IMG/VR virus record: IMGVR_UViG_3300028025_000988
Span: 1 to 39,331 of that record
Reading direction: 5' to 3' (one strand)
DNA from: a virus
Length of the DNA stretch: 39,331 nt
The notes under the pieces are model-generated. The model searched no databases, was not told where the DNA came from, and saw only the letters and a list, made by a program, of their open reading frames with translations. Below, piece after piece: positions 26,998 to 38,261 of the stretch. Every line of letters starts with the position of its first letter. Position 1 is the first letter of the stretch. The translations under genes and the position numbers were made by a program.

Positions 26998-27206
26998 AAG
27001 ACTTAATCGAAAGACTAAAGAGCGACAAGACTAAGGCTGCAGTTAAGTCTTACCTTCGTGCTGTCCTAGCATCAGCAATCACAATGGGACTAGCACTTGC
27101 TGCTGACTTAGCCCCTGAGTACGCAATCCTAATCGGTTCCATAGCGGGACCATTGGCTAAATGGGCAGATAAGACCGAAAAAGAGTTTGGTCTAGGAGCC
27201 GAATAG
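26994..27206 (+). CDS. Holin candidate
   Basis: A 70-residue protein from ATG 26994 with GAAGGAGAACA just upstream, overlapping the endolysin stop. A basic amphipathic N-terminus (LIERLKSDKTKAAVKSYLRA) is followed by two hydrophobic segments, AVLASAITMGLALAA (about 21-35) and YAILIGSIAGPLA (about 41-53), and a charged tail. This fits a small class II holin that lets the endolysin reach the wall. Last gene of the late operon; the terminator follows 42 bases later. Confidence 0.8.
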   Translation: MKDLIERLKSDKTKAAVKSYLRAVLASAITMGLALAADLAPEYAILIGSIAGPLAKWADKTEKEFGLGAE

Positions 27207-27248
27207 ATACCTCTAATTAGCCTTTAAAGGGCCTTTATAGACATTTAA

Positions 27249-27290
27249 CCCCCCCCGACTTAGTAGAAATACTAGGAAGGGGGGTCTTTT
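27249..27290 (+). terminator. Strong intrinsic terminator of the late operon
   Basis: A C run at 27249-27256 pairs with the G run 27279-27284. An inner stem TAGTA / TACTA is closed by a GAAA tetraloop, and TCTTTT follows at 27285-27290. This is a textbook rho-independent terminator, placed after the holin and before the replication operon. Confidence 0.9.
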
Positions 27291-27335
27291 GTCGTTCTAT
27301 CTCGTGTTTTTCTATCTCTATATATTATATATTAT

Positions 27336-27360
27336 AGACCCCAAAGGGGTCTTATTATTA
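27336..27360 (+). terminator. Second tandem intrinsic terminator
   Basis: AGACCCC (27336-27342), loop AAA, GGGGTCT (27346-27352), then TATTATTA. A perfect 7-bp GC-rich stem with a T-rich tail, 50 bases after the first terminator, giving near-complete insulation of the two rightward operons. Confidence 0.85.
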
Positions 27361-27402
27361 TATATTATATATACAATTATACAAACCTGAATTCTTTATG
27401 TA

Positions 27403-27463
27403 GGTACGACTGATTATAACTACGTACCCACAGTATCCTGTGGATATGTATATACTATCTGAC
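27403..27463 (+). promoter_or_regulatory. Putative operator/promoter for the replication operon
   Basis: Between terminators and the first gene lie two adjacent inverted repeats: GGTACG (27403-27408) with CGTACC (27423-27428), and CCACAG (27428-27433) with CTGTGG (27438-27443). A -10-like TATACT is at 27451-27456, seven bases before the ATG at 27464, so a transcript would start at or next to the start codon (leaderless or nearly so). No good -35 is seen; the palindromes occupy its place, suggesting activator- or repressor-controlled transcription. Confidence 0.45.
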
Positions 27464-27655
27464 ATGACAATACAACTTGGGGAATACACCCTACCTGAAC
27501 ACATATCATACTCCGCATTTACTACATACGCCGACTGTGGTTATCAGTACTACTTAGGTCGACTACTTCAGTTACCTGAACAACCATCAGTTTGGTCAGT
27601 GGGTGGCTCTGCCTTTCACTCAGCCACAGAAGCATGGGACTTGGAGAATCTATGA
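27464..27655 (+). CDS. N-terminal part of a split Cas4/RecB-family nuclease
   Basis: A 63-residue protein from ATG 27464, chosen because the -10-like box precludes the GTG at 27440. It carries ISYSAFTTYADCGYQYY (14-30) and VGGSAFHSATEAW (46-58), the first motifs of Cas4/RecB-type PD-(D/E)XK nucleases, with the single N-terminal Fe-S cysteine (C25) and the helix-embedded H52/E56. It ends there: the catalytic core lies in the gene at 27857, which is in the same reading frame. The intervening frame contains several stops. Its TGA overlaps the ATG of the inserted ORF (ATGA at 27652). Confidence 0.75.
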   Translation: MTIQLGEYTLPEHISYSAFTTYADCGYQYYLGRLLQLPEQPSVWSVGGSAFHSATEAWDLENL

Positions 27656-27885
27656 TTGAAATAGTTAACGAAGATGGTTCGACTACTATGACCTACAAAA
27701 CTTACTCAGCCATTATGCGTGAGCGATATGAAGATGGGTTGAAGGAAACCTGGGCTGTTGCAATGGGCTCCATCAATTCGCTTATCGATAAGACAACAGA
27801 TGAAATTGAACTTCTTGGTTTACAACATGCTAAAGCAGTTCTTAAGGAGGCACTAAGTGGTCACCGCTCAAAGTCTCTGGACTGA
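27652..27885 (+). CDS. 77-residue ORF inserted between nuclease parts, unknown
   Basis: MIEIVNEDGSTTMTYKTYSA ... AKAVLKEALSGHRSKSLD. It is coupled at its start to the N-terminal nuclease gene (ATGA, with GGAGAA at 27643-27648) and overlaps the next gene by 29 bases. It sits in a different frame from the nuclease halves, which are in frame with one another. The sequence has a helical, charged character and no motif I know; it may be a structural bridge between the nuclease halves, an inserted gene, or a relic. Codon use resembles the neighbours. Confidence 0.65.
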   Translation: MIEIVNEDGSTTMTYKTYSAIMRERYEDGLKETWAVAMGSINSLIDKTTDEIELLGLQHAKAVLKEALSGHRSKSLD

Positions 27886-28462
27886 TGCTTGGAATAAGGA
27901 AGCCGAAGGTAAAGATTTAACCTTTGCTCGTGTTGGTGGTAGGACATCTAAAGCATTTCCTAACAGAGAGAATGTAGATTTCTGGCAACAGACTGGACCT
28001 GAATGGGTTCAATCATACATCGAGTGGCGCAAGGCTAATCACAATTGGAAAATTTGGCACACTCCTGAAGGCGCACCCGCCGTAGAGTTGGGGTTAACTC
28101 CAGTCTTTGCTGACGTACCAGTGAAGATGGTTCTTGATAGAGTGTTTGAAGTCGATGGTGAGTTGGTCGTGGTTGACCTCAAGACTTCACAACAAACCCC
28201 AACTAGTACCTTACAACTTGGCTTCTACAAACTAGGATTGAAACAAGTCTTAGGTGTAGATGTCAAGTATGGTGCATACTGGATGGCAAGACAACAAGGT
28301 ACATCCGCTATGGTAGACCTTAGTGATTATACCGAAGAGAAACTTGAATACTTAGTTCGTTCCTTCGATATGGCACGTAAGGCTGGTATATTTATTCCCA
28401 ATACAAACAACTGCAATCGTTGTGGATTAACAGAGTACTGTCAATTCACTTCGAAGAAATGA
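27857..28462 (+). CDS. C-terminal catalytic part of a split Cas4/RecB-family nuclease
   Basis: A 201-residue protein from GTG 27857 with an excellent AAGGAGG at 27844-27850. It holds the PD-(D/E)XK core: VLDRVF (D94), VVVDLKTS (D107, K109), QLGFY (Q120) and three C-terminal cysteines C186, C189 and C195. In Cas4 and AddB-type enzymes one N-terminal and three C-terminal cysteines hold a 4Fe-4S cluster; here the N-terminal one is on another protein (27464). The likely role is single-strand-specific exonuclease in phage recombination or replication. Related actinophage proteins, as I recall them, are a single chain of about 260-300 residues. Confidence 0.85.
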   Translation: MVTAQSLWTDAWNKEAEGKDLTFARVGGRTSKAFPNRENVDFWQQTGPEWVQSYIEWRKANHNWKIWHTPEGAPAVELGLTPVFADVPVKMVLDRVFEVDGELVVVDLKTSQQTPTSTLQLGFYKLGLKQVLGVDVKYGAYWMARQQGTSAMVDLSDYTEEKLEYLVRSFDMARKAGIFIPNTNNCNRCGLTEYCQFTSKK

Positions 28463-28469
28463 GATAACA

Positions 28470-28859
28470 ATGGCAAATGAAGACTGGAAACTACAAGTTT
28501 CCTATAAGACACCATCAGGTGATATGATAAATATCCGTGCTAATACTGCGGATGAATTGTCTGTGCTACTTGAAGGCATAGGCGATTACTCTACACAGAT
28601 TTCATCTGTGCAACAGAAGGTAGTAGGTGCTTACACACTTGCCCCTTTATCGACCACGAGTTCCACTATCGGCACAAAGCCATTAGTATCCTCGCCTCCA
28701 ACCCAGGTATCGCCAGCGCCAGGTACAGCGTCACCCGTATGCAAACACGGAGCCCGTATATGGCGAGAGGGAATCAGTAAGGCTAGTGGTAAACCATATG
28801 CATTCTGGTCTTGTCCTTCACCTCAAGGAACACCTGACCAATGCAAACCAGTAAACTAA
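28470..28859 (+). CDS. Zinc-ribbon protein of the replication operon
   Basis: A 129-residue protein with a folded N-terminal region (LQVSYKTPSGDMINIRANTA), a Pro/Ser/Thr-rich linker (about 55-88) and a C-terminal ribbon (CKHGARIWREGISKASGKPY then WSCPSPQGTPDQC). This C-terminal motif is a recurrent companion of the Cas4-like nuclease in actinophages. It may bind single-stranded DNA and help load the nuclease or helicase; that is inference. Confidence 0.75.
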   Translation: MANEDWKLQVSYKTPSGDMINIRANTADELSVLLEGIGDYSTQISSVQQKVVGAYTLAPLSTTSSTIGTKPLVSSPPTQVSPAPGTASPVCKHGARIWREGISKASGKPYAFWSCPSPQGTPDQCKPVN

Positions 28860-28902
28860 AAAACTGGCACAAATCTTTTTTTGGAACTAGAAAGGAACCT
28901 GG

Positions 28903-29685
28903 ATGCGTACACTTATCCGCTCAGTTGGTCGTGCCAGTATTGGTGGGGAACCATTACCATCTTGCTTTAAGGCATTCGAGTCAAATAAGATTATCATCCG
29001 ACGCTCCGAAGTTTCTATGTTTGCAGCAGCACCAGGAGTTGGAAAATCCACACTCGCATTAGCCCTAGCATTAAAGATGAAGGTGCCTACACTTTACATC
29101 TCTGCTGATACTAATGCACATACAATGGCTATGAGATTAGCCTCTATGATTTCTGGAAAGAATCAAACAGATGTAGAAGGAATGTTGCAATCTGATGTTG
29201 GTTGGACTAGGGCTACTCTATCAAAGAGTAACCATATAGTTTGGTCATTTGAATCAGCACCAACATTACAAGACATCGATGAAGAGGTACAATCTTTTGA
29301 AGAACTATGGGGTTGTCCACCTACTCTAATCATAGTTGATAACTTAATGGATGTAGCCACAGATGGTGGTGAAGAGTTTGCTTCTATGAGAGCAATCATG
29401 AAGGAGTTGAAATACCTTGCACGTGCTACGAACTCGGCTGTTGTTGTTCTTCATCACACTAGCGAGGCTGTTCTTGGGACACCATGTCAGCCACGCTCTG
29501 CTATCCAAGGTAAAGTTGCACAACTTCCAGCACTTATATGCACGCTTGGTGTTGTTGGAACGTCGATGGGAGTTGCACCTGTTAAGAACAGATACGGCAG
29601 AGCCGATGCGGGTGGAGGTCTCATGACTTGGATTGCATTCAACCCTGAGTATATGTTCGTAGATGATATCCCAGAGAATCACTAA
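28903..29685 (+). CDS. RepA/DnaB-like replicative ATPase (AAA_25-type)
   Basis: A 260-residue P-loop ATPase with Walker A APGVGKST (43-50), Walker B LIIVDN (142-147) and VVVLHHTSE (about 183-191), typical of the RecA-like fold of the KaiC/RepA/DnaB group. The central region NAHTMAMRLASMISG matches RepA-type hexameric helicases. Without the N-terminal domain of full DnaB it is best called a helicase-like ATPase, probably the replicative helicase together with the primase genes downstream. SD GGAACC precedes the ATG. Confidence 0.8.
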   Translation: MRTLIRSVGRASIGGEPLPSCFKAFESNKIIIRRSEVSMFAAAPGVGKSTLALALALKMKVPTLYISADTNAHTMAMRLASMISGKNQTDVEGMLQSDVGWTRATLSKSNHIVWSFESAPTLQDIDEEVQSFEELWGCPPTLIIVDNLMDVATDGGEEFASMRAIMKELKYLARATNSAVVVLHHTSEAVLGTPCQPRSAIQGKVAQLPALICTLGVVGTSMGVAPVKNRYGRADAGGGLMTWIAFNPEYMFVDDIPENH

Positions 29686-30550: not shown

Positions 30551-30900
30551 GTTCATATGGCAAGCGTAAAGGCGCTACCTTTGAGACTAGTGTAGTTAAG
30601 TGGCTACGCTCCAAGGATATACTAGCCGAGAGATTAACCAAGGCTGGTGCTAAAGATGAGGGTGATGTCGTTGCTTTCTTAGATGGAGCAGCAAATATAT
30701 TAGAGTTAAAGGCAACAAAGAAGTTAGACTTACCACAGTTCTGGCGTGAGGCTGAGGTTGAGGCAGAGAATTATGCTAAGGCTAGAGGATTAAAAGAAGT
30801 ACCATATAAGTTCGTAATAGTTAAACGTAGACAGGCAGGCATAGACAAGGCTTGGGTGGTGGAAGATTTTGAACAATGGACTAAGAGGGCAGGCAAATGA
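30547..30900 (+). CDS. Holliday-junction resolvase-like PD-(D/E)XK nuclease
   Basis: A 117-residue protein from ATG 30547 (ATG 30541 also in frame; 30547 chosen for the ATGA coupling). GKRKGATFETSVVKWLR carries E13; DEGDVVAF gives D40; and LELKA gives E53 and K55, forming the E-D-ExK site of archaeal Hjc-type resolvases. The length suits the family. It would resolve branched replication and recombination intermediates before packaging. It overlaps the primase zinc-finger ORF downstream. Confidence 0.8.
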   Translation: MSSYGKRKGATFETSVVKWLRSKDILAERLTKAGAKDEGDVVAFLDGAANILELKATKKLDLPQFWREAEVEAENYAKARGLKEVPYKFVIVKRRQAGIDKAWVVEDFEQWTKRAGK

Positions 30901-31258
30901 CTTACCAAATATCAGAGAAATACTTTTACACTACGGAGCACAAGTACGACCAGGACACGGGCAAGTTAATCTCAAGTGTCCATTCCACTCCGACACACAC
31001 CAGTCGGGAAGTGTTAATCTCGACAATAACATTTACATCTGCTTCGCCTGCGGAGTCCAAGGTAATAGTTTACAAATTATCGCACAGCAGGAAAGGGTAG
31101 ATATACGTGAGGCAAAAAGAATCGCAGAAGGAATTGTTGGGACTAGCCAGTCAGAAGTACGCGGCAAACATTTATCAGGCAGAAGATTACCTCAGAAGCA
31201 GGGGTATAACAATGGAAGTGGCACGATTGGCACGATTAGGCGTAGTCGTGGAGGCTGA
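30869..31258 (+). CDS. DNA primase zinc-binding (CHC2) subunit
   Basis: From TTG 30869 this frame encodes 129 residues with CPFHSDTHQSGSVNLDNNIY and ICFACGVQGNSLQII: the CxxH...CxxC zinc finger of DnaG-type primases (C37, H40, C58, C61). The C-terminus is basic and low-complexity (GKHLSGRRLPQKQGYNNGSG ... RRSRGG), as expected of a free-standing protein. No ATG is in frame before the domain, so the start is uncertain. It overlaps the resolvase by 32 bases and the TOPRIM subunit by 152. Confidence 0.8.
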   Translation: MNNGLRGQANDLPNIREILLHYGAQVRPGHGQVNLKCPFHSDTHQSGSVNLDNNIYICFACGVQGNSLQIIAQQERVDIREAKRIAEGIVGTSQSEVRGKHLSGRRLPQKQGYNNGSGTIGTIRRSRGG

Positions 31259-31730
31259 GATTGGTCACGAACAATTCACTGGTAGATTATCTATACCTTA
31301 TGTTACTAAAACTGGTGTAGTAGATTTAAGATTCCGTTCTCTTAATCCTGCAGTTGAACCAAAGTATATGGGTATGACTGGTGCTGAAACTAGAATGTAT
31401 AATGTATTAGATATAGAAAGAGCGGGTGACTTCATTGGAATATGTGAAGGCGAGATTGATACACTTACTCTTTCTTCTCTCGTTGGAATTCCCTGTGTTG
31501 GTGTCCCTGGTGCAAACTCTTGGAAGAAGCACTACACACGATTGTTGGCGGACTTTGAACGGGTGTTTGTATTCGCAGATGGAGACCAGCCTGGAAAAGA
31601 ATTTGCCACTAGTCTTGCCCGCGAACTACCAGTTACTATCATTCAATTACCAGACGGACAAGATGTCAATTCTATGTATGTGCAAGAAGGTTCTTCATAC
31701 TTCAATCATAAGGTGGGTATAAATGAGTAA
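31107..31730 (+). CDS. DNA primase TOPRIM (catalytic) subunit
   Basis: A 207-residue protein from GTG 31107. YLRSRGITMEVARLARLGVV (29-48) and GRLSIPYVTKTGVVDLRFRS (59-78) are DnaG-like core motifs; GICEGEIDTLTL (111-122) with E114 and VFADGDQPGKEF (155-166) with D158/D160 form the TOPRIM metal site, and GQDVN follows. The zinc finger is supplied by the overlapping upstream gene in another frame. Together they should make primers for host or phage polymerase. It stops on the next ATG with an overlap. Confidence 0.85.
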   Translation: MRQKESQKELLGLASQKYAANIYQAEDYLRSRGITMEVARLARLGVVVEAEIGHEQFTGRLSIPYVTKTGVVDLRFRSLNPAVEPKYMGMTGAETRMYNVLDIERAGDFIGICEGEIDTLTLSSLVGIPCVGVPGANSWKKHYTRLLADFERVFVFADGDQPGKEFATSLARELPVTIIQLPDGQDVNSMYVQEGSSYFNHKVGINE

Positions 31731-36139: not shown

Positions 36140-36175
36140 GGTAGTAATTATATCACTACCAATTCTAGAAGTCAA
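36140..36175 (-). promoter_or_regulatory. Consensus promoter with operator palindrome (P1)
   Basis: On the minus strand TTGACT (36170-36175), a 17-base spacer and TATAAT (36147-36152). The inverted repeat GGTAGT (36140-36145) / ACTACC (36155-36160) is centred on the -10 box, a typical repressor operator position. The -35 lies inside the last codons of the upstream amidotransferase gene. Drives 36081 to 33884. The leader also carries a CTTGG/CCAAG hairpin at 36106-36122. Confidence 0.85.
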
Positions 36176-37037
36176 GTGGTTCTTTCGTGTACCACTTGTT
36201 GCTTAGGTATCCATACTCCTGACCTATCTCCTTCTTATGATTAGGGTGATAGCATAAGCAGTCTAAGAAGTTCACTTCGCAGTCGAAGCAAGCCTCACAC
36301 ATCTGACAATAATATTCGTTCTCCCATAAGTCTACTATTGACTCGCAACTAGGACACTCGAACTTGTTCTCCTCATATAGAGAAGGTTTGAAGTGGTCGT
36401 CTATTGCTACAATATCATACACACTAGGCTCACCATAAGTGTGATTATAGGTGGTAGTGCGTGGCGTGGACACGATAGACTTGTGAGAGTTATTACTCCA
36501 CCACACACCATTGTCGTCCCAACTACCTAAGTTCTCGTTGATAATATAAATCTTGTACTGTGCGCTAGGGTCATTAGTCATGACGGCAACCTTGCTACCA
36601 CTAGCCCATGAACTAATCATATCATATACATAGTCGTCATCTAAAGCGGACACACCGCCTAGTCGTGGCAATAACTCCTCTGCCATAATCCTAGTGTCGC
36701 TACGCTTATCACCTTTAGGTATATGAATATCTAACACACCATTGTGCGCTAAGTAAGTATCATGCTCACCCACTACCTTGAAGGGGTGGCAATTAAGTTC
36801 GTTCTTTACTCCATGAGTAGCATACCTAGCGTGCCACATAGCATAGCCATTAGGATATTGCTCACGCAATTCTAAGAACCTAGCGATAGACTTCTTAGCG
36901 GACATACTGCGTTCTGATATAATACCAGCACCAGTATCTATCGCAAAGCCAAAGCCATGTGGGTTCTTACACGCACCAGTAGTAAGTTCATCTTTACTGG
37001 GTGTGGAATTAGGATTACACACTACTAATAGACACAT
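36165..37037 (-). CDS. Class II glutamine amidotransferase with C-terminal zinc ribbons
   Basis: A 290-residue Ntn-type amidotransferase. C2 is the N-terminal nucleophile after Met removal; NPHGFGFAID (25-34), HARYATHG (69-76) and LAHNGVL (96-102) are the family's glutamine-binding motifs. From about 228 on, eight cysteines (228, 231, 244, 247, 250, 253, 260, 262) form zinc-ribbon-like clusters. No synthetase or isomerase partner domain is fused. It is 12 bases downstream of the amidoligase gene, with which it probably works, supplying ammonia or removing glutamyl groups. Such pairs have been predicted to modify peptides or cell wall. Confidence 0.85.
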   Translation of the reverse strand: MCLLVVCNPNSTPSKDELTTGACKNPHGFGFAIDTGAGIISERSMSAKKSIARFLELREQYPNGYAMWHARYATHGVKNELNCHPFKVVGEHDTYLAHNGVLDIHIPKGDKRSDTRIMAEELLPRLGGVSALDDDYVYDMISSWASGSKVAVMTNDPSAQYKIYIINENLGSWDDNGVWWSNNSHKSIVSTPRTTTYNHTYGEPSVYDIVAIDDHFKPSLYEENKFECPSCESIVDLWENEYYCQMCEACFDCEVNFLDCLCYHPNHKKEIGQEYGYLSNKWYTKEPLDF

Positions 37038-37049
37038 ACATCTCCTCTC

Positions 37050-38261
37050 TTACGCATTGACCAACTCCTTACTGTTGATACTTAATGAGCGTACTTTGGA
37101 CATACGCTCATATAAGTCAGGGTAGTAGCCATTATTGGCTTCTACATAATCATAGAACCACTCCCAACCTAGCATACCTATCTTTACATCTGATATGTTT
37201 AGGTTGCGAGTATATTCTATACTAGCGTGTGCTAATTGTATAGCACTACGGACACCACTAGGCTTAGTAGTTCCCCTAAAGAACCTAAGTTCTAGCGTGT
37301 GGTCGTTCCGCGTATTTATAGCGGAGTGCCTCTCGGTGTTCACCCCTCTAGGGTCAGCCACCTTGTCGGCTAATGTAAAGTATGGTCTATCGTACTCATC
37401 ATACTTGTACACATCATTGAACTTTGCGTAGTCTGACTTACGACCAGCAAATCTCATCATATCAGGCGCGTTCTTGTACACTAGTGCCAACCACCTATGT
37501 ACATGTGCGCCACTCTTAAACCCCTCTCGACTCACATGTATATGTAGTCCGCAACTCTTAGCGTCCCATGCCCTTGCCTCTTGATGTTCTCTTAGATAGT
37601 CTAAGGTTCTATCAAAGTCTGGCATATCCGACCACTTAGTAAATGATATAGGGTGAGATACTAACTCGAAGCCACGATAGCCACCTTGACCGATACTGCT
37701 ATCCTGCTTCATATAGAACCACTCGCCTATATTTTCTGCTACATACCTAGCACTACTCGCTAGGTCGCCTGACCTAATCTCCATTTCCAATTCTATCCCA
37801 AAGTATAGATTATTCTTATCTTGACCTATAAACTTAGGGTCGGGCTTGTATGAGTAGTCGTGGATAAGGTTAGTCCTACCACCACCACCGCAACCCTCAC
37901 ACTCTCTTGCGTAGTATTGGTCGCAGTCATCACAATAAGAACCATTGTCCTCATAGCAACCCTCACACCAATACTCACCCCTATCCTCGATATGGTACAT
38001 GCTCTCATTGTCGGGATATGTACAACTACATCTCTCGCAATAGTTAGTGTGGTTCTCCCAACATGGCTCGCAATAATCACCGATACCTTCTACATAGTGG
38101 GTGTTATCATTGTGGCAATACTCCTCACAATAATTACACCATGCTCGGCAACTCTCGCATAGTAGGTCATCACCTACTAGCATGAAGTCGTCCTCGCTAG
38201 TAGATGTATAACTACATGTACCGCAACCATACTCGGTAGGTTCGTCATCATCTATCGGCAT
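37050..38261 (-). CDS. Amidoligase (COOH-NH2 ligase) with Cys-rich N-terminus
   Basis: A 403-residue protein. The first about 125 residues hold 18 cysteines in CxxC pairs (LIM/zinc-ribbon-like). From about 150 comes the amidoligase domain: YFGIELEMEI (153-162) with catalytic Glu residues, RGFELVSHP (196-204), a later CGLHIHVS and HTLELRFFRGT. These match the predicted amidoligase family, relatives of glutamine synthetase and Pup ligase, that form amide or isopeptide bonds using ATP. Target unknown. It lies directly upstream of the glutamine amidotransferase and downstream of the promoter P2 leader genes. Confidence 0.88.
   Translation of the reverse strand: MPIDDDEPTEYGCGTCSYTSTSEDDFMLVGDDLLCESCRAWCNYCEEYCHNDNTHYVEGIGDYCEPCWENHTNYCERCSCTYPDNESMYHIEDRGEYWCEGCYEDNGSYCDDCDQYYARECEGCGGGGRTNLIHDYSYKPDPKFIGQDKNNLYFGIELEMEIRSGDLASSARYVAENIGEWFYMKQDSSIGQGGYRGFELVSHPISFTKWSDMPDFDRTLDYLREHQEARAWDAKSCGLHIHVSREGFKSGAHVHRWLALVYKNAPDMMRFAGRKSDYAKFNDVYKYDEYDRPYFTLADKVADPRGVNTERHSAINTRNDHTLELRFFRGTTKPSGVRSAIQLAHASIEYTRNLNISDVKIGMLGWEWFYDYVEANNGYYPDLYERMSKVRSLSINSKELVNA

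What the first reader, a model, noticed from the sequence alone, without database searches (positions are those of the whole stretch)
27464..28462. Cas4-like nuclease split across two in-frame genes around an inserted 77-codon ORF
The N-terminal motifs with the lone Fe-S cysteine (C25) are on a 63-residue protein; the D/DLKT/QxxxY core and three Fe-S cysteines (C186, C189, C195) are on a 201-residue protein with its own AAGGAGG. Both are in the same frame, yet the about 200 bases between contain in-frame stops and encode an unrelated ORF in another frame, coupled at both ends. If functional, a 4Fe-4S cluster would have to form across two chains, perhaps with the middle protein as a bridge. An insertion into a formerly single gene explains the matching frame.
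Basis: partly seen in the sequence, partly recalled or inferred. Interest (0 to 1): 0.75.

Follow-up and report, generated by a model that had tools for sequence, protein, structure and literature searches.

The report
Phage nuclease permanently made in two pieces
A large family of viruses that probably infect common freshwater actinobacteria makes a DNA-cutting enzyme as two separate protein pieces that share one active site and one iron-sulphur site, and the gap between the two genes has repeatedly taken in and lost other small genes.

Summary
N (27464-27655, 63 aa) and C (27857-28462, 201 aa) are the two halves of a Cas4-like (PF12705) nuclease, with a 77-codon ORF M (27652-27885) between them. 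It is not a damaged gene. All 162 distinct relatives with both halves are split at the same point and none is fused. Two of the named relatives are the cultivated Planktophila phages LanE43AprF5 and E7. All 86 more distant homologues (about 25-36% identity) are single genes. Every split pair keeps Cys25 and His52 on N, and Glu77, Asp94, Asp107, Lys109 and Cys186/189/195 on C. All three ORFs are under purifying selection. An AlphaFold model of N tethered to C forms one domain resembling the AdnA/AddB/Cas4 nuclease fold. Best explanation: an obligate two-chain nuclease whose metal site and predicted Fe-S cluster span two chains made by separate, coupled translation. M is not a required bridge: whole relatives lack it and other lineages carry different ORFs in the gap. 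Split phage enzymes and 3+1 Fe-S ligation across chains are known, but I found neither reported for Cas4-like nucleases. Whether an early M insertion caused the split is unresolved. Assembly and cluster formation are inferred, not shown.

The parts
27451..27456 (+). TATACT, -10-like hexamer 7 nt upstream of N's ATG; probable leaderless start of the operon
   Evidence: A -10-like hexamer lies in the last 20 nt upstream of N in 63 of 117 distinct upstream regions, mostly 6-8 nt from the ATG; an SD-like motif precedes N in only 17 of 162. No good -35 in the window itself; leaderless status is inferred.
27464..27655 (+). N: N-terminal chain of the split Cas4-like nuclease (63 aa; C25, H52, E56)
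   Evidence: PF12705 positions 1-47; dN/dS 0.05; C25 and H52 invariant in 162 split and 86 intact homologues.
27652..27885 (+). M: 77-aa inserted ORF, ATGA-coupled to N and overlapping C by 29 nt; function unknown
   Evidence: dN/dS 0.19-0.27; found only between N and C (67 of 67 loci with both flanks); no Pfam match at E<=1 and no convincing PHROG match; model is a beta hairpin plus a helical hairpin, pLDDT 87.7, with no significant structural neighbour.
27844..27850 (+). AAGGAGG, Shine-Dalgarno of C, inside M
   Evidence: Direct reading; an SD-like motif precedes C in 43 of 56 M-bearing but only 2 of 106 M-less pairs.
27857..28462 (+). C: C-terminal chain (201 aa; E77, D94, D107xK109, Q120xxxY124, C186/C189/C195)
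   Evidence: PF12705 positions 81-247 and Cas_Cas4 PF01930; dN/dS 0.10; residues invariant.

Best explanation
N and C are two separately translated chains that assemble into one Cas4/AdnA-type PD-(D/E)XK nuclease of a phage in the freshwater actinophage (probably Nanopelagicales) group. The split lies in the connection between two helices. N supplies the metal-binding His52 and one Fe-S cysteine. C supplies the acidic and lysine core and three Fe-S cysteines, so both the catalytic site and the predicted Fe-S cluster are completed only on association. N probably starts a leaderless transcript. C is made by reinitiation at an overlapping start codon when it adjoins N, and usually from its own Shine-Dalgarno sequence when M lies between. 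M is an accessory, dispensable gene occupying the gap. By its neighbours (DnaB-like helicase, RusA, two-part primase) and by single-chain relatives near DnaB-like helicases, the enzyme most likely serves phage replication or recombination, not CRISPR. Shown here: the split, its age and universality in the clade, residue conservation, selection, the predicted joint fold. Inferred: physical N-C association, Fe-S cluster, nuclease activity, translation mechanism, biological role, host.
For: All 162 distinct N/C pairs are split and none fused. The split is one fully supported branch (100/100), against 86/86 uninterrupted homologues. Two of the split genomes (OX376641/OX376640) are the cultivated lytic Planktophila phages LanE43AprF5/E7 (PMC10202952). 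N keeps C25 and H52 and C keeps E77, D94, D107, K109, Q120, Y124 and C186/189/195 without exception. dN/dS is 0.05 and 0.10. AlphaFold of N-(67 out-of-frame residues)-C gives pTM 0.79 with N at 86-97 and most of C at 94-98 pLDDT while most of the tether is at 31-72. That model aligns across both chains to the AdnA nuclease domain (Z 16.8, 225 residues), ACE1 Cas4-family protein (Z 15.9) and AddB (Z 15.7). In M-less genomes C mostly overlaps N and has no SD (104/106); in M-bearing ones it usually has an SD (43/56). N and C persist even with 961 nt of other genes between them.
Against: No biochemical or interaction data. The alignment behind the model contains intact homologues, so the model would favour the intact fold whether or not the free chains associate. 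The Fe-S cluster is inferred from the four-Cys signature only.
Confidence: 0.83

Rival explanations
1. N and C are joined into one polypeptide by recoding (programmed frameshift, bypass or readthrough).
For: N and C are adjacent in conserved order, and both are needed for a complete fold.
Against: Relative to N, C lies in frame +1 in 79, +2 in 28 and 0 (with several stops between) in 55 pairs, so no single recoding event fits; 0 of 162 have a classical slippery heptamer near N's end. C has its own start codon, and usually an SD where N is distant. M-bearing genomes would need two shifts or a 200-nt bypass.
Confidence: 0.04
2. C works alone and N has been kept for another job (for example as a regulator or DNA-binding piece).
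For: N is a distinct gene with its own probable promoter.
Against: N keeps exactly the catalytic His and Fe-S Cys used in intact enzymes, in 162/162; C would lack a metal ligand and a cluster ligand; the joint fold is predicted with high confidence.
Confidence: 0.08
3. Decaying pseudogene fragments, or an assembly or read error.
For: The gene is interrupted compared with mycobacteriophage homologues.
Against: Same split in 162 distinct genome variants and in two cultivated phages; strong purifying selection on all three ORFs.
Confidence: 0.01
4. M is a required third subunit that bridges N and C.
For: M is under selection and occurs only between N and C.
Against: M is missing from seven whole or near-whole genomes with intact N and C; apparently lost at least twice within its clade; the slot is empty or filled by unrelated ORFs elsewhere.
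Confidence: 0.04
5. Origin: an M-like insertion created the split in the ancestor and M was then lost many times, leaving overlapping N and C genes (as opposed to the split coming first and M entering the gap later). Same two-chain enzyme either way, so this is not exclusive of the best explanation.
For: M-like ORFs occupy the same slot in three separate lineages (window clade, L557, L379), their divergence broadly follows that of C (r about 0.79 over non-independent pairs), and M is found nowhere else.
Against: Equal-cost parsimony prefers few gains; most of the deep diversity lacks M; other ORFs have entered the slot independently. The correlation was not tested against a tree-based null.
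Confidence: 0.35

Closest known systems
Single-chain Cas4-like (PF12705) exonucleases of mycobacteriophages, Cutibacterium and other actinophages (phrog_1870; for example D29 gp69, Rutherferd gp70)
   Same: Same domain, same invariant catalytic and Cys residues, same neighbourhood as a DnaB-like helicase gene.
   Different: One gene and one chain there; here two genes and two chains, with an insertion slot between them.
AdnA/AddB Fe-S nuclease domains and Cas4-family ACE1 (PDB 9np6, 4cej, 9iac)
   Same: Fold of the combined N+C model, Z 15.7-16.8 over 224-236 residues.
   Different: Those are single-chain domains, some inside large helicase-nucleases.
Split phage enzymes: Aeh1 nrdA split by mobE, T4 gene 60/39 with mobA, gene 43A/43B of Aeromonas phages 25 and 44RR (PMC2988022)
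   Same: A single enzyme gene broken into two co-oriented ORFs with an insert; the parts reassemble (shown for NrdA; 43A/43B co-purify with activity). The 25/44RR pair likewise has different inserts at one split gene.
   Different: Those inserts are homing endonucleases or untranslated sequence; M is neither by sequence search. Here the split spans a large clade, mostly with no insert.
Fe-S clusters ligated 3+1 across two chains: mitoribosomal mS25/bS16m [2Fe-2S] (PMC11452305), DPOR BchN/BchB [4Fe-4S] (PMC12518044)
   Same: Three ligands from one chain and one from another.
   Different: Not nucleases; origin by splitting one ancestral domain is not described for them in the passages read.

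Membership tests
Cas4-like / PF12705 PD-(D/E)XK nucleases | Catalytic motifs (His; Glu/Asp; D-x-K; QxxxY) | tested here: met
   H52 on N; E77, D94, D107xK109, Q120xxxY124 on C; invariant in 162 split and 86 intact sequences; PF12705 above cut-off for both chains.
Cas4-like / PF12705 PD-(D/E)XK nucleases | Four conserved cysteines for an Fe-S cluster (PMC5704561) | tested here: met
   C25 on N plus C186, C189, C195 on C, invariant. Cysteines only; the cluster itself was not tested.
Cas4-like / PF12705 PD-(D/E)XK nucleases | RecB-like/Cas4 fold | tested here: met
   Tethered N+C model aligns to AdnA, AddB and ACE1, Z about 16; the model is informed by intact homologues.
Cas4-like / PF12705 PD-(D/E)XK nucleases | Assembled Fe-S cluster and exonuclease activity | not testable with these tools
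   Needs purified protein.
CRISPR-associated Cas4 (CAS-Cas4) | Adjacent to cas1/cas2 | tested here: not met
   The neighbours scanned are a gp49-like protein, a DnaB-like helicase, RusA and primase.
Gene split by a homing endonuclease (Aeh1 nrdA type) | Enzyme gene in two co-oriented ORFs separated by an insert | tested here: met
Gene split by a homing endonuclease (Aeh1 nrdA type) | Insert encodes an HNH or GIY-YIG endonuclease | tested here: not met
   No Pfam match for M at E<=1; invariant residues T17, I21, M22, R25, Y26, G29, E32, L57, A60 fit neither motif.
Intron-interrupted gene | Catalytic intron RNA at the junction | tested here: not met
   No Rfam match at E<=1 in 27000-29000; M-less relatives have N and C directly abutting with no room for an intron.
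Split intein (trans-splicing) | Intein halves at the end of N and the start of C | tested here: inconclusive
   N and C hold no extra residues beyond the nuclease domain, leaving no room for intein halves, but no intein model was scanned on its own.
Programmed-frameshift gene | One fixed frame relation and a slippery site | tested here: not met
   C in all three frames relative to N; 0 of 162 classical slippery heptamers.

The most novel reading that the evidence does not exclude
The N|C junction is a plug-in slot: M and the other small ORFs found there (for example the 104-aa coiled-coil-like ORF of L353/L376 and the two ORFs of L344) are alternative accessory subunits or modulators that bind the two-chain nuclease at its split face and tune its substrate or timing.
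Probability: 0.15. Interest if true: 0.75.

Novelty: new variant of a known kind. Interest (0 to 1): 0.62.

Why it matters
If the two chains assemble as predicted, this is a natural, long-lived two-chain version of a Cas4-type Fe-S nuclease, in which neither chain alone has a complete metal site or cluster. That makes questions about cluster assembly and folding across chains testable with short proteins. It also suggests that a split phage enzyme can be a stable state of a whole viral clade, instead of a fresh scar, and that the breakpoint can act as a recurrent insertion site. The cultivated Planktophila phages make it testable in a real infection.

Tried and rejected
Programmed frameshift or bypass: rejected on frame statistics and absence of slippery sites. 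Intron: no Rfam match. M as part of the nuclease or as a homing endonuclease: no family match. Tblastn of M against the annotated phages collection gave nothing. Structure searches with M gave only insignificant, mostly helical matches; this does not show that its fold is new. An earlier alignment for modelling (A7) misplaced the start of the C rows and was replaced by A8. Bacterial genome contigs gave only three intact relatives, in Longimycelium and Amycolatopsis, plus two distant hits in long multi-domain, helicase-like ORFs. Literature searches found no report of a split Cas4-like nuclease; the library holds only part of the literature. The supplementary gene table of the Planktophila phage paper could not be read, so how its authors annotated N and C is unknown. 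The first two family searches failed on a wrong start coordinate for M and were repeated.

Full report
WHAT IS THERE. The window carries three overlapping, co-oriented ORFs. N (27464-27655, 63 aa) ends in ATGA, whose ATG starts M (27652-27885, 77 aa). C (GTG 27857 to 28462, 201 aa) starts inside M behind AAGGAGG. N matches PF12705 at profile positions 1-47 and C at 81-247, plus Cas_Cas4 PF01930, so together they make one nuclease domain with a gap at about positions 48-80. N and C share a frame, and the stretch between has five in-frame stops, N's own included. The window is a 39.3-kb viral record with terminase, portal, glycosyltransferase, WhiB and a sigma factor. The last three are also reported for the cultivated Nanopelagicales phages (PMC10202952).

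IT IS REAL AND CONSTRAINED. A first scan gave 80 close viral loci (83-100% identity in C). Every one for which enough upstream sequence is held has N as a separate ORF. Median pairwise dN/dS is 0.05 for N, 0.10 for C, and 0.27 for M overall (0.19 for its main type outside the overlap with C). The pairs are not independent, so these are descriptive.

THE SPLIT IS OLD AND UNIVERSAL IN ITS CLADE. Wider scans gave 162 distinct N/C pairs, down to about 57-59% identity in C. None is fused. Two phage records, OX376641 and OX376640, are Planktophila phages LanE43AprF5 and E7, isolated and sequenced on a Nanopelagicales host (the names match the record title of OX376641), so the split is not a metagenome artefact. 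In contrast, all 86 intact-type homologues examined (from viral contigs, mycobacteriophages, a Thermobifida phage and three actinobacterial chromosomes; about 25-36% identity to C) are uninterrupted. A maximum-likelihood tree puts the split genes on one side of a single 100/100 branch. That single genes are ancestral is inferred from their wider spread; the tree is not rooted.

THE CHAINS STILL CARRY A COMPLETE SITE BETWEEN THEM. In 162/162 split pairs and 86/86 intact homologues, C25, W44, G48, H52 and E56 (N) and E77, D94, D107, K109, Q120, Y124, C186, C189 and C195 (C) are unchanged. All Cas4 family members have the catalytic motifs plus four Fe-S cysteines (PMC5704561). Here one Cys and the His are on N, and three Cys and the acidic/Lys core are on C.

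FOLD. The window's frame was read through with its stops as glycine, giving N and C joined by 67 meaningless residues plus nothing of M, and modelled with 86 further rows. The model has mean pLDDT 84.7 and pTM 0.79; N is at 86-97 and most of C at 94-98, while most of the tether is at 31-72. It aligns over residues 7-329 to the AdnA nuclease domain (Z 16.8, 225 residues, 3.6 A), to ACE1 (Z 15.9) and to AddB (Z 15.7). More residues align than C has, so N takes part, although a few tether residues may be counted. Caveats: intact homologues in the alignment push the model towards the intact fold; it is not a two-chain prediction; coordinates could not be inspected.

HOW THE TWO CHAINS ARE MADE. 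In 106 pairs without M, C is in the +1 frame 79 times and the +2 frame 27 times; in M-bearing pairs it is nearly always (55 of 56) in frame 0 with stops between; no classical slippery heptamer was found. This argues against recoding and for separate translation. C has an SD-like motif in 43 of 56 M-bearing pairs but 2 of 106 M-less pairs, where its start codon typically overlaps or abuts N's end. N has a -10-like box in the last 20 nt upstream in 63 of 117 distinct upstream regions, mostly 6-8 nt from its ATG, and rarely an SD (17 of 162), which suggests a leaderless transcript. Coupling and leaderless initiation are inferred.

WHAT M IS. M occurs only between N and C (67 of 67 loci with both flanks; the same in an overlapping earlier set). 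It is absent from seven whole or near-whole (39-45 kb) relatives' genomes and was apparently lost at least twice within its clade. Remote M-like ORFs lie in the same slot in L379/L380 and L557. Other lineages carry different ORFs there: a 104-aa ORF in L353/L376/L377 and two ORFs (961 nt between N and C) in L344/L345. M's model is a beta hairpin plus helical hairpin without significant neighbours. So M is dispensable to the arrangement, and its role, if any, is unknown. Its divergence broadly follows C's (r 0.79 over 28 non-independent pairs), so an ancestral M insertion that split the gene, followed by many losses, remains possible.

RELATION TO WHAT IS KNOWN. Split phage enzymes that reassemble are established: Aeh1 NrdA, phage 25 gene 43A/43B, and by inference T4 topoisomerase (PMC2988022). 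3+1 Fe-S ligation across chains is established in mitoribosomes (PMC11452305) and, with an Asp, in DPOR (PMC12518044). A Cas4-type nuclease in two conserved chains was not found in the literature held. I therefore class it as a new variant of a known kind.

ROLE. Neighbouring genes (gp49-like, DnaB-like helicase, RusA-like resolvase, a two-part primase) and the single-chain relatives' position near DnaB-like helicase genes point to DNA replication or recombination. This is inference.

Noticed in passing
window 30869-31258 and 31107-31730: The DNA primase is also in two overlapping ORFs in different frames: a zinc-finger-like part (phrog_360) and a Toprim part (phrog_849 positions 128-337). phrog_360 is itself a short primase family, so this two-part form is probably common in related phages.
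   Followed up: partly
L078 2774-2998 (also L217): N carries a 12-codon in-frame tandem duplication and stays open.
   Followed up: no
L344/L345 601-1900; L353, L376, L377 1250-1900: Other ORFs sit in the N|C gap: a 104-aa lysine-rich, coiled-coil-like protein, and in L344 a second, longer ORF.
   Followed up: partly
window 27451-27463: Probable leaderless promoter: -10-like box 7 nt before N's ATG; relatives such as L214 and L264 have TTGACA and TATAAT with the ATG 6 nt after the TATAAT.
   Followed up: partly
window 36165-38261, - strand: A class-II glutamine amidotransferase-like gene next to an amidoligase-like gene, possibly a peptide or cell-wall modification pair.
   Followed up: no
window 27250-27290: A C-rich run, a G-rich run and T's just before the N operon look like a terminator.
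   Followed up: no
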